Assembly: GCA_017621035.1 (NCBI GenBank)
Contig: JAGATY010000060.1
Span: forward strand, 1 to 45,724
Length of the DNA stretch: 45,724 bases
Reading direction: 5' to 3'
Source of the DNA: Bacteroides sp.
GTDB lineage: Bacteria; Bacteroidota; Bacteroidia; Bacteroidales; Bacteroidaceae
Part shown: one piece after another, positions 21,551 through 24,908 of the stretch
Layout: each line of letters opens with the position of its first letter
How positions within the stretch are numbered: the first letter of the stretch is position 1
Notes under the pieces: generated by a model
The model's database searches: none
The model's input: only the letters and a program-made list of their open reading frames with translations
What the model was told of the DNA's origin: nothing
Position numbers and translations under genes: made by a program

Positions 21551-22558
21551 ATGAGAATACTTTCTTTCCTCTTACTATTCCTTTGTGGCGCAGCAGAGGC
21601 ATACTCGCAACTACAGAACACCCCTTTCTCAGGGAACCATCAGACAAAAGTGCCTGCAGCTGAATCGTGCATCATAACAATCATCCATGAATATGACACT
21701 CCTAAAGAGAAACATTATAACATTGAATATATCCGTGAGGGTAATAAAGTGACTTATGGAAATGGCTATACTGATATTATGGTGGAATACAATTCGTCTG
21801 GTCAGATTATAAGGTATAAAGAGCTCTTATACAACATTGAAGAAGAATATACATATGACCAAGAAGGCCGGATATTGGAAGTTTTAGGAACAGCATCTAA
21901 GAAACATTATTATTATACCGGTACTTCCACAGACTCTATTGTTTCGTGGAATTATGCTGCCCCTGTAAGCACATGGTATAAAACAGGAAAAGAAGAAATT
22001 ATCTATACTGAAACCGGTTATAATGATGTGCATTATACCTATAATAATGAATCAAACTCCTACGCTTATTGGTTTACTGCTGAATATGTTCTAGATGAAT
22101 TGCAACGAGTGGTAGAGATAAGGGAGAGTGATAGAAGCCAAAACAACAGATGGACTTATGAATATACCGAGAATGGTTGTATCTACACAGTCTATCAACC
22201 GGCAGCTTCAGCATTCTGTAGAACAGAATACACCTACAATAGTGATGGCGACCTCATAAAAACTATATACAGCGAATGGATGAATAACTCCTATTGGTTT
22301 CCTGTTATTACCACCACGTATGAATATAACTGCCTGACTGCCATCAACAAAGTAAAGCAGGAACCTCTTGATATAGATATAAAAGTTGTAGGAAAGAACC
22401 TTTGTGTACACTCTGATTCAGAAGTAAGCATCGAACTGTATAATTTGCAGGGGAAGGTCATTAAGCGTGCAACAGCTGATTTAGAGGTTTCTCTAACACC
22501 AGGTCTCTACATCCTGAAAGCAGGAAATCTGAGTCGGAAAATATCAATCAGCCACTAA
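21551..22558 (+). CDS. Secreted YD-repeat-like protein with C-terminal sorting-like domain
   Basis: A 335-residue protein with a signal peptide (LLFLCGAAEAYSQ). The middle consists of irregular tyrosine-rich units of the form EYxYDxxGRIxxV (EEYTYDQEGRILEV, TEYTYNSDGDLIKTIYS, AEYVLDELQRVVEI), like the YD/RHS motif found in wall-associated proteins. The last 75 residues (VVGKNLCVHSDSEVSIELYNLQGKVIKRA, LTPGLYILKAGN) have the pattern of type IX secretion C-terminal domains, though in Bacteroides such domains may only be remnants. The gene is clearly richer in A+T than dprA 31 nt upstream, which suggests a different history. Function unknown. Confidence 0.75.
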   Translation: MRILSFLLLFLCGAAEAYSQLQNTPFSGNHQTKVPAAESCIITIIHEYDTPKEKHYNIEYIREGNKVTYGNGYTDIMVEYNSSGQIIRYKELLYNIEEEYTYDQEGRILEVLGTASKKHYYYTGTSTDSIVSWNYAAPVSTWYKTGKEEIIYTETGYNDVHYTYNNESNSYAYWFTAEYVLDELQRVVEIRESDRSQNNRWTYEYTENGCIYTVYQPAASAFCRTEYTYNSDGDLIKTIYSEWMNNSYWFPVITTTYEYNCLTAINKVKQEPLDIDIKVVGKNLCVHSDSEVSIELYNLQGKVIKRATADLEVSLTPGLYILKAGNLSRKISISH

Positions 22559-23080: not shown

Positions 23081-23160
23081 TTATCGAAAAACGATAAATA
23101 TTTATCGTTTTACTTGGTGGTATCAGCAGAATGTCTTTCCTTTGCATATCGAAAAACAAT
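23081..23160 (+). promoter_or_regulatory. Operator palindromes and promoter of the CPBP/DUF2975/XRE module
   Basis: The promoter is TTG (23114-23116), 20 nt, TTCCTTTG (23137-23144). Three related sites surround it: TTATCG-AAAAA-CGATAA at 23081-23097, a perfect 24-nt palindrome with arms AAAACGATAAAT at 23088-23111 that shares a half with the first, and ATCG-AAAAA-CAAT at 23148-23160, which would cover the start of transcription. Such paired sites fit binding by a dimeric repressor; the XRE protein at 24708-24908 is the obvious candidate. Confidence 0.6.
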
Positions 23161-23187
23161 AAAAACCTTTAATGAGAGGAGACGCAT

Positions 23188-23265
23188 ATGAATTTTAGTA
23201 TTGTGGCAATCTTGATGTTGATTGTTTCGTTTGTAGCAATGGTTGTATCTTTCTTTTTGATTTGA
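23188..23265 (+). CDS. 25-residue membrane peptide
   Basis: A 26-codon frame starting MNFSIVAILMLIV and ending SFFLI, hydrophobic almost from end to end, so a single transmembrane helix. It has a strong Shine-Dalgarno (GAGAGGAGA) 7-8 nt before its ATG, unusual in this genome. The predicted promoter lies just upstream and the CPBP gene starts 16 nt after its stop. Position, hydrophobicity and ribosome site argue for a real gene below the usual length cutoff. It could be a regulator or substrate of the protease or DUF2975 protein, or a leader peptide. Confidence 0.55.
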   Translation: MNFSIVAILMLIVSFVAMVVSFFLI

Positions 23266-23281
23266 TGGGAGGGTATGAGTT

Positions 23282-24016
23282 ATGATGAAGGCTATTAAAT
23301 TGGTATTGATTTACTTCCTGATGCAGATTGCAGGAGGTGTGGTGCTGTTTCCGCTGATGTTTGTGGCAGTACCGGAAGGTTTGTTGATAGGGTTGGCTCT
23401 GTTACTGGGCTGTCTGTTTATGACAGTTTACCTGTGGAAGAAAGGGTATCTGAAGAATGACGGCCGCATCTTCTCTCCGGTATCGGCAGTCTTTTTAGGG
23501 TGGTCGCTACTGGCAGGAGTATCGGTTATCTTTCTGGAAGACTTGCTGCTATCGAACCTACGTTTTCTGCCCAACCTGATGGAGCAGACGTTTGATGCCA
23601 TGCAGTCCGGCTGGGTAGGCATTCTGGCCATTGCATTGGTGGGACCGGTGGTAGAGGAGTTTCTCTTCCGAGGGGCTATTACCAAAGTGTTGTTACAGAG
23701 CTACTCACCTCGGGCAGCCATCTTGCTCTCGGCACTGGTATTTGGTGTCTTCCACCTGAATCCGGTACAGATTGTAGGTGCCACTCTGGTTGGTTTGCTG
23801 CTGGCCTGGCTCTATTGGCGGACGGGCAGTCTGATGCCGGGCATCTTGATACACATCTTTAATAATAGTCTGTCGGTTTATCTCTCACTTCACTATCCTG
23901 ATGTGGAGTATATGGCAGACATTCTTCCTGCGGCTCCCTACTACGGTTTGCTGGCGGTGGCTGCCGCCTTGCTCTGCATCTCGGTAAAGGTTTTGACTAA
24001 AAAGAAGAAAGTATGA
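23282..24016 (+). CDS. CPBP family intramembrane metalloprotease
   Basis: A 244-residue membrane protein with about seven hydrophobic segments. The CPBP/Abi motifs are all there: EExxxR at Glu125-Glu126-Arg130 (GPVVEEFLFRGAI), FxxxH at Phe154-His158 (FGVFHLN) and HxxxN at His191-Asn195 (HIFNN). These residues form the active site in Rce1-type proteases. Bacterial members include peptide-processing and self-immunity proteins, so the short upstream peptide is of interest. Start: two ATGs in tandem at 23282 and 23285. The last codons overlap the DUF2975 gene by 4 nt (ATGA), showing translational coupling. Confidence 0.88.
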   Translation: MMKAIKLVLIYFLMQIAGGVVLFPLMFVAVPEGLLIGLALLLGCLFMTVYLWKKGYLKNDGRIFSPVSAVFLGWSLLAGVSVIFLEDLLLSNLRFLPNLMEQTFDAMQSGWVGILAIALVGPVVEEFLFRGAITKVLLQSYSPRAAILLSALVFGVFHLNPVQIVGATLVGLLLAWLYWRTGSLMPGILIHIFNNSLSVYLSLHYPDVEYMADILPAAPYYGLLAVAAALLCISVKVLTKKKKV

Positions 24017-24681
24017 AGACAAAGTCAGGAATAATCAGCATCTTGGGCATTCTTGCCATATTGGTTATGGTGGGAGAGTTTGTGTACACCTTCTCCATTG
24101 GTCTGCAAGACTTTAGCGATGGTTTCAACGAAGGCTACGACAGAGGACGTGCCAAACAGGAGCAAGCAGCGACAGAGAGTGGTGAGGATAGTAATGAAGA
24201 GGCATACAAAACCCTCTACGTACATGTACGCCCGGCAGAGGGTGTGCCGGCAGACACGCTATTGAATGTCAACACAGGTAGCTACTCTCCCTATCAGGTT
24301 TCAACCATACGCACCCGCTTCATCCCCTCCGCTGCCTCTGATGTGCTGATGGTGTTGCTGGGAATCTCCGGCATAATAGCTGCCACGGGCATTATCTTCT
24401 TGATTCGGGTATTGCTGAATATCTCCAAAGGACGGGTATTTGTCAAGACCAATGTGCGCAGCCTACGCTTCTTCTCTTACTCACTGGCCTTGATGATGTT
24501 CCTTGTACAAGCTAACGAGTGGTTGGACTATCTGGTTGCCGGCCAGCAGTTATACCTCTCCGGCTACGAGTTGCTGCCACCCGCAACCAATGACTTCACC
24601 TCCCTCATCATCATCTTATTGCTGACAGAGATATTTGCCGTCAGCGTGAAGATAAAGGAGGAGCAAGACCTAACCATTTAA
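24013..24681 (+). CDS. DUF2975 family membrane protein
   Basis: A 222-residue protein with four predicted membrane helices: about 9-30, 108-135 (SDVLMVLLGISGIIAATGIIFLI), 150-170 (FFSYSLALMMFLVQ) and 192-215. A soluble loop of about 75 residues lies between helices 1 and 2, rich in acidic and small residues (GRAKQEQAATESGEDSNEEA). The segment LLNISKGRVFVKTNVRSLRFFSYSL is typical of DUF2975. Members are usually followed by a small YozG-like XRE regulator, as here 26 nt downstream. No biochemical role is known. The ATGA overlap with the protease gene suggests they work together. Confidence 0.82.
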   Translation: MKTKSGIISILGILAILVMVGEFVYTFSIGLQDFSDGFNEGYDRGRAKQEQAATESGEDSNEEAYKTLYVHVRPAEGVPADTLLNVNTGSYSPYQVSTIRTRFIPSAASDVLMVLLGISGIIAATGIIFLIRVLLNISKGRVFVKTNVRSLRFFSYSLALMMFLVQANEWLDYLVAGQQLYLSGYELLPPATNDFTSLIIILLLTEIFAVSVKIKEEQDLTI

Positions 24682-24707
24682 ACCATTCCCTTAAGAGCAA
24701 GTTTTAT

Positions 24708-24908
24708 ATGATAGTAGTAAACCTTGACATAGTCATGGCTCGCCGAAAGATTACCTTAAGTGAACTAGCCGAGCGGATAGGCATTACTCCCGCCAATCTC
24801 TCCATCCTGAAGACGGGGAAGGCCAAAGCCATCCGCTTCTCCACCCTGGAGGCACTCTGCAAGGAGCTGAACTGCCAGCCGGGGGATATTTTGGAGCATC
24901 TTCCCTAA
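24708..24908 (+). CDS. Small XRE-family (YozG-like) transcriptional regulator
   Basis: A 66-residue protein that is essentially one helix-turn-helix domain: VNLDIVMARRKITLSELAER, then IGITPANLSILKTGKAKAIRFSTLEALCKELNCQPGDIL. This is the YozG-like XRE subgroup that is normally paired with DUF2975 membrane proteins. It is the last gene of the operon starting at 23188. The likely targets are the ATCG-N5-CGAT sites around the operon promoter. Such pairs may work like a membrane-tethered or sequestered regulator, which is inference. Confidence 0.87.
   Translation: MIVVNLDIVMARRKITLSELAERIGITPANLSILKTGKAKAIRFSTLEALCKELNCQPGDILEHLP

What the first reader, a model, noticed from the sequence alone, without database searches (positions are those of the whole stretch)
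23081..24908. Micropeptide-CPBP protease-DUF2975-XRE module with paired operator palindromes
Four genes in tight order (16-nt gap, 4-nt overlap, 26-nt gap): a 25-residue hydrophobic peptide with a strong Shine-Dalgarno, a CPBP membrane protease with all motifs, a DUF2975 membrane protein and a small XRE regulator. The promoter is bracketed by TTATCG-N5-CGATAA, a perfect 24-nt palindrome, and a degenerate copy (ATCG-N5-CAAT) over the expected start of transcription. DUF2975 plus a YozG-like XRE is a known pairing. The added peptide and protease suggest a membrane signalling or self-protection circuit in which the protease may act on the peptide or the DUF2975 protein. This is the most system-like unit I see and the function is not described for these families.
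Basis: partly seen in the sequence, partly recalled or inferred. Interest (0 to 1): 0.75.

Follow-up and report, generated by a model that had tools for sequence, protein, structure and literature searches.

The report
Self-repressing membrane protease operon with micropeptide
A gut bacterium carries a small, probably self-controlled operon (a tiny membrane peptide, a membrane protease, a membrane protein and its own off-switch) whose DNA switch sites and a short protein tail recur beside the same off-switch in several bacterial phyla, pointing to a shared but undescribed membrane signalling device.

Summary
A one-helix micropeptide precedes the CPBP protease in 26 of 39 same-genus loci; 20 clear homologues show purifying selection in frame. 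The two sites are a conserved operator pair flanking the promoter: present in 22 of 24 genus loci with the XRE gene and 0 of 13 without. The extended site TTATYG-N5-CRATAA lies upstream of 42 of 48 other Bacteroidota DUF2975-XRE operons (1 of 11 unpaired DUF2975 genes) and is enriched upstream of 16 of 23 such pairs on named plasmids from several phyla. Within the genus the XRE is 87% identical and DUF2975 36%, except its last eight residues (KEEQDLTI, 91%). That tail is on 59 of 60 XRE-paired DUF2975 proteins and 2 of 11 unpaired ones, and in one lineage on the CPBP protease itself. Best reading: the XRE represses its own operon and the tail draws it to the membrane to relieve repression, as SdpI does for SdpR. 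Autorepression is well supported by comparison; tail docking is inferred, and its link to the XRE rests on few independent events. Signal and peptide role are unknown.

The parts
23081..23097 (.). Operator 1, TTATCG-AAAAA-CGATAA, just upstream of the -33 region
   Evidence: the only two hits (one palindromic site) of TTATYG-N5-CGATAA in the 2.6-Mb own assembly are here
23088..23111 (.). 24-nt perfect palindrome overlapping operator 1; second arm lineage-specific
   Evidence: second arm in 3 of 17 rows
23114..23144 (+). Bacteroides-type promoter: -33 TTGG (23114-23117) and -7 region ending TTTG (23141-23144); consensus recalled
   Evidence: both TTTG blocks conserved in the promoter alignment
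23146..23162 (.). Operator 2, ATATCG-AAAAA-CAATAA, over the expected start of transcription, 65 bp from operator 1
   Evidence: spacing 65 or 66 bp in 23 of 26 pairs found
23188..23265 (+). 25-residue one-helix micropeptide MNFSIVAILMLIVSFVAMVVSFFLI, a diverged member of a genus-wide family
   Evidence: the window's own peptide was left out of the selection test because it is diverged
23282..24016 (+). CPBP (Rce1-like) intramembrane protease, 244 aa
24013..24681 (+). DUF2975 membrane protein, 222 aa, four predicted helices with a periplasmic stretch between the first two
   Evidence: model mean pLDDT 70.8
24655..24678 (+). Codons of the conserved C-terminal tail KEEQDLTI
   Evidence: synonymous codons vary while residues hold
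24708..24908 (+). XRE/HTH_26 regulator, 66 aa, proposed autorepressor

Best explanation
An autorepressed, membrane-sensing operon. Well supported by comparison: the XRE protein and the paired TTATYG-N5-CRATAA sites belong together, and the sites bracket the promoter, so the XRE most likely binds them and shuts its own operon. Inferred: DUF2975 has four helices with its last residues in the cytosol, and its invariant tail (KEEQDLTI) is where the XRE docks; when DUF2975 senses a change in the membrane or periplasm the tail captures the XRE, repression is lifted, and peptide, protease and DUF2975 are made. The CPBP protease with its one-helix micropeptide is the output; the peptide is most likely a small partner or substrate of the protease. 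DUF2975 is duplicated (up to four copies) and diverges fast while tail and XRE stay fixed, as expected if different signals feed one switch.
For: Operators follow the XRE: 22 of 24 versus 0 of 13 usable same-genus loci (tallied, Fisher 3e-8; all 65 usable loci: 25 XRE+site, 3 XRE only, 1 site only, 36 neither). Other Bacteroidota: 42 of 48 XRE-paired operons versus 1 of 11 unpaired at shuffle p<0.05. Named plasmids: 16 of 23 at p<0.05, 8 with at most one mismatch, exact in Enterococcus raffinosus and Pseudonocardia alni. Six further loci examined later: 5 of 6 have tail and site, the sixth being an XRE fragment with neither. 49 of 50 XRE genes in 196 genomes have DUF2975 just upstream; the odd one has neither partner nor site. 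Tail: 59 of 60 paired versus 2 of 11 unpaired; identity 91% for the last 8 residues, 36% for the rest of DUF2975, 87% XRE, 45% CPBP in 20 loci. Paralogues not directly before the XRE keep the tail. The CPBP of L180 and L181 ends KEEESLTI and KENESLTI. Peptide: 20 homologues, pS 0.70, pN 0.30, pN<pS in 189 of 189 pairs, third codon position most variable (0 of 20000 permutations).
Against: No binding, expression or interaction data. Tail versus XRE is not phylogenetically independent: the tree gives 3 independent pairs and a sign test p of 0.5. The tail motif was widened after the strict form (ending LT[VIL]) gave 48 of 60; on 23 named plasmid pairs the strict form fits 7, the widened one 11, a very loose one 22. 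The tail on CPBP is one lineage (two related MAGs). Three XRE loci lack the site pair (L078, L079, L254) and L086 keeps an operator-2-like sequence without an XRE. In 7 of 16 scored loci a TAnnTTTG box lies between peptide and CPBP, so the protease may be made independently there. Three XRE loci of 24 lack the peptide.
Confidence: 0.5

Rival explanations
1. Plain autorepression without tail docking: the XRE represses the operon, and DUF2975 and CPBP are effectors that never touch it. The tail serves DUF2975 itself, for example as a C-terminal stability or quality-control signal.
For: Operator data do not require tail docking. Two unpaired DUF2975 proteins keep tail-like ends (SENDLIV, DELRHTV). 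Unpaired proteins form mostly one clade, so tail loss may be one event.
Against: Tail appears on a CPBP of the same operon; 49 of 50 XRE genes sit beside DUF2975; the one paired member inside the mostly unpaired clade (G297) keeps SENDLTI while its relatives have SENDSTG, DIKSDND, SVTSGVC.
Confidence: 0.27
2. A toxin-antitoxin-like pair: DUF2975 (or the micropeptide) is a membrane poison and the XRE its neutraliser and autorepressor, with the tail as the neutralisation site.
For: XRE proteins are common antitoxins; an earlier survey listed YoaS-like membrane protein plus Xre as a conserved pair and set it aside (PMC2701414, passages). Many pairs are on plasmids. The peptide resembles type I toxins in size and hydrophobicity (recalled).
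Against: DUF2975 is multiplied up to four times per operon and combined with a protease and DUF3836 genes, more like sensors and outputs. The XRE gene is last, and partners persist without it: the peptide in 5 of 15 same-genus loci where no XRE was found.
Confidence: 0.12
3. One reading: the CPBP protease cuts the micropeptide (a signal or self-toxin) or DUF2975, making a self-protection or peptide-signal circuit.
For: The peptide is conserved next to CPBP and is kept with CPBP when DUF2975 and XRE are absent (L059, L073-L075, L086). CPBP proteins are linked to bacteriocin loci (PMC9298176 and others, listing and start of abstract); a Weissella plasmid has a tail protein and XRE next to a CPBP and a bacteriocin exporter.
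Against: 13 of 39 same-genus CPBP loci have no such peptide; no conserved cleavage motif, secretion genes or receptor were noticed, though none was systematically searched for. Peptides end in many different ways.
Confidence: 0.11

Closest known systems
SdpI/SdpR of Bacillus subtilis (membrane receptor that sequesters its autorepressor)
   Same: Multi-span membrane protein and small autorepressor in one operon; the model proposed here is the same logic (PMC1626106, passages).
   Different: SdpR is recalled as ArsR-type, not XRE; no relation to DUF2975 was tested. Here a CPBP protease and micropeptide are added, and a short tail is the proposed docking site.
YoaS-like/Xre pair (YoaS/YozG; DUF2975 + HTH_26)
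   Same: This is the core of the operon; the association was listed in 2009 as 'a membrane protein, likely permease' beside Xre (PMC2701414, passages).
   Different: No operator, tail or function given in the passages seen; the window version adds peptide and protease. That YoaS is DUF2975 and YozG the XRE is recalled; B. subtilis is a DUF2975 control hit.
VanUG autorepressor of vanG operons
   Same: Small Cro/CI-type autorepressor with two adjacent imperfect palindromes overlapping -35 (PMC4405338, passages).
   Different: NCBIfam VanU score 29 bits against a cut-off of 150; no DUF2975 partner described in the passages seen.
CPBP/Abi proteases in bacteriocin loci
   Same: Same Pfam family (PF02517).
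   Different: Here a genus-wide chromosomal gene usually near ribF and sufE, with no bacteriocin gene recognised next to it.

Membership tests
CPBP/Rce1-like protease (PF02517) | Profile match above cut-off and the two-glutamate, FxxxH, HxxxN motifs | tested here: met
   84.6 bits against 22.4; residues invariant. Activity not tested.
DUF2975 (PF11188) | Profile match above cut-off | tested here: met
   48 bits against 27
HTH_26 / XRE | Profile match above cut-off | tested here: met
   84.2 bits against 22
VanU (NF000090) | Score above curated cut-off | tested here: not met
   29.2 bits against 150
SdpRI-type sequestration system | Autorepressor and membrane protein co-encoded with a conserved operator at their promoter | tested here: met
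   (sequence evidence only)
SdpRI-type sequestration system | Membrane protein physically sequesters the repressor on signal | not testable with these tools
   Only indirect tail evidence
SdpRI-type sequestration system | Homology of the membrane protein to SdpI | not tested
   No direct comparison made; no SdpI family among the Pfam hits
Toxin-antitoxin system | A toxic component neutralised by its partner | not testable with these tools
   No toxicity data
Claudin/TARP-like fold for DUF2975 | Clear structural match | tested here: inconclusive
   Foldseek best E 0.46, probability 0.30; VIA-align Z to 9.9 for unrelated three-helix parts, TARP/claudin rows about 6-7.7

The most novel reading that the evidence does not exclude
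The C-terminal motif (K)EExDLT[IV] is a portable docking tag for one highly conserved XRE repressor: membrane proteins of any family that carry it, usually DUF2975 but also a CPBP protease, pull the repressor off its TTATYG-N5-CRATAA operators. This would be a widespread, undescribed one-component membrane-to-DNA switch in at least four phyla, here wired to an intramembrane protease and a micropeptide.
Probability: 0.4. Interest if true: 0.82.

Novelty: new variant of a known kind. Interest (0 to 1): 0.62.

Why it matters
DUF2975 has no described function in the library searched (2 papers mention it, each once), yet the pair spans several phyla. Naming its operator and a candidate docking tail turns an unknown family into a testable switch: one gel shift, one tail deletion and one reporter would decide it. 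It also gives Bacteroides genetics a conserved micropeptide gene that is easy to miss and a candidate inducible membrane-protease operon.

Tried and rejected
Site as a chance palindrome: rejected by conservation; in the window alone chance is not excluded. A genome-wide regulon: the own genome has the TTATYG-N5-CGATAA site only here, and most other sites in relatives have unrelated spacers at a rate not far from the control pattern; not pursued for every site. Tail as a ribosome-binding artefact for the next gene: rejected because codons vary synonymously and paralogues not next to the XRE keep it. Solved-structure relatives: XRE only 3tyr at 2.3e-5, CPBP none at E<=0.01. DUF2975 fold: no reliable match. 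The genome-contig scan gave few Bacteroidales (L179-L181). Viral contigs gave a few XRE-tail pairs (10 of the 47 loci were examined), no phage-specific story. Papers: DUF2975, Bacteroides+CPBP+small protein, YozG/YoaS, SdpI/SdpR, VanU, CAAX protease+bacteriocin, Bacteroides small-protein profiling, DUF3836 (no paper), and a combined DUF2975/Xre/sequester search gave no description of the operator, tail or peptide in the listings and passages seen; other libraries were not searched.

Rows dropped: one search used 65 of 69 loci (L066, L067, L097, L114 have short flanks); many of the 36 'neither' loci there are distant CPBP relatives, so the same-genus count (37 usable of 39) is the fairer one. 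One search used 20 of 27 peptides (left out: the window's, L059, L064, L085, L086, L091, L179, as diverged or hard to align). One search dropped one row (G373, too short); the tail of G362 was taken because picked the wrong frame there; for Klebsiella grimontii no DUF2975 gene is annotated and I set its start by hand; its tail lies in another frame than the membrane part. In one search the Pseudonocardia tail printed is from a wrong frame; one search shows EENDFTV. Shuffles keep base composition only. The peptide tally (26 of 39) is read by eye; L066 lies at a contig edge.

Full report
What is there. The window's assembly is unnamed; the genus is probably Bacteroides (inference from promoter type, gene order and relatives).

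Conservation of the unit. The CPBP protease has orthologues in nearly the whole genus. I oriented and read 39 same-genus loci, the window included. 24 carry the XRE downstream, with one to four DUF2975 copies between. The micropeptide is in 26 of 39: 21 of 24 with XRE and 5 of 15 without (XRE absence could not be judged at one contig edge, L067). Some loci lacking XRE abut ribF with no peptide (L063, L068, L080, for example). Four loci (L057, L069, L076, L084) add further genes after the operators: in L057 the protein is DUF3836 (5.5e-31), and the others look alike.

The peptide is a gene. Twenty clear homologues (pattern near MKKAFMSISLLVxSxSM) show pS 0.70 and pN 0.30, pN below pS in 189 of 189 pairs, and the third codon position most variable. 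The window's own peptide is a shorter, diverged copy and was not in that test.

The operators. Aligned promoters show an invariant core GCATATCGAAAAACGATAAAT directly after the -7 TTTG, and TTTATYGTTTTTCGATAAAT upstream of the -33 TTTG; spacing is 65-66 bp in 23 of 26 pairs. Same-genus count: 22 of 24 with XRE, 0 of 13 without (Fisher 3e-8). Exceptions: L078 and L079 (operator 2 lost) and Phocaeicola massiliensis (L254, another upstream context). L059, which lacks DUF2975 and XRE, has a decayed operator 2; L086 keeps a near operator 2 without an XRE, a point against. In G029 the XRE and an exact site lie at a separate locus from a site-less CPBP: the site follows the XRE.

Beyond the genus. 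In 198 Bacteroidota genomes DUF2975 was found in 51. Of 48 XRE-paired operons 42 have the site upstream at shuffle p<0.05, against 1 of 11 unpaired genes. My first, stricter pattern (ATCG-N5-CGAT) had found it in only 5 of 60 loci; widening to ATYG...CRAT, the variation already seen in the genus, gave the stronger result. On named plasmids 16 of 23 pairs reach p<0.05, including Enterococcus, Staphylococcus, Bacillus, Klebsiella, Cedecea, Pseudonocardia, Streptomyces and Actinomyces; Gemmatirosa, Roseburia, Lactococcus, E. faecalis, Weissella, Serratia and S. atratus do not. Six loci read later behaved as predicted in 5; the sixth is an XRE fragment.

The tail. DUF2975 copies in these operons mostly end KEEQ[DE]LT[IV] (L071 has a split copy). 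In 20 loci the last 8 residues are 91% identical and the rest 36%, the XRE 87%, CPBP 45%, with varied synonymous codons. In the phylum set 59 of 60 XRE-paired proteins have the tail (widened motif; 48 with the strict one) against 2 of 11 unpaired. The tree shows that unpaired proteins fall mostly in one clade: only 3 independent pairs, sign test p 0.5, so this correlation alone is not decisive. More telling, in L180 and L181 the CPBP protease, an unrelated family, ends KEEESLTI and KENESLTI (2 of 67 loci). The DUF2975 model (mean pLDDT 70.8) has four helices; with the positive residues at the N-terminus and in the middle loop this puts the tail in the cytosol (inference).

How it works. Shown by comparison: peptide is coding, operators and XRE belong together, tail is under strong constraint. 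Inferred: XRE binds the operators and represses; DUF2975 senses something in the envelope and its tail captures the XRE; CPBP plus peptide are the output. This is the SdpI/SdpR logic (PMC1626106, passages). An earlier survey had noted the YoaS-like/Xre pair and set it aside (PMC2701414, passages). VanUG shows that a small autorepressor of this kind can bind two palindromes at its promoter (PMC4405338, passages), but our XRE is not VanU.

Verdict. The pair was known; the operator, the tail and the Bacteroides peptide-protease version appear undescribed in what I searched. I rate it a new variant of a known kind, interest 0.62.

Noticed in passing
L057, L069, L076, L084 between operator 2 and CPBP (L057 CPBP -604..-116): A secreted DUF3836-family protein (tested for L057, 5.5e-31), in some loci with a further 35-48 aa one-helix peptide, has entered the same operator-controlled operon.
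   Followed up: partly
peptide-CPBP gap in relatives, e.g. L057, L058, L061, L065, L070, L072: A TATCTTTG box about 30 bp upstream of CPBP suggests an internal promoter in 6 of 16 scored gaps (a seventh, L085, has a box far upstream); the window's 16-nt gap has none.
   Followed up: partly
L250 (Weissella confusa plasmid pWcMBF8-1): A tail-like membrane protein plus XRE next to a CPBP protease and a peptide cleavage/export transporter annotated for bacteriocin transport.
   Followed up: no
window 24013-24681: The predicted DUF2975 model has a claudin/TARP-like order of helices and strands, but the structural matches are too weak to claim.
   Followed up: partly
window 21551-22558: The gene upstream of the operon is a 335-aa secreted protein with a type IX secretion C-terminal signal (TIGR04183, 23.8 bits against 23), where many relatives have ribF.
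   Followed up: no
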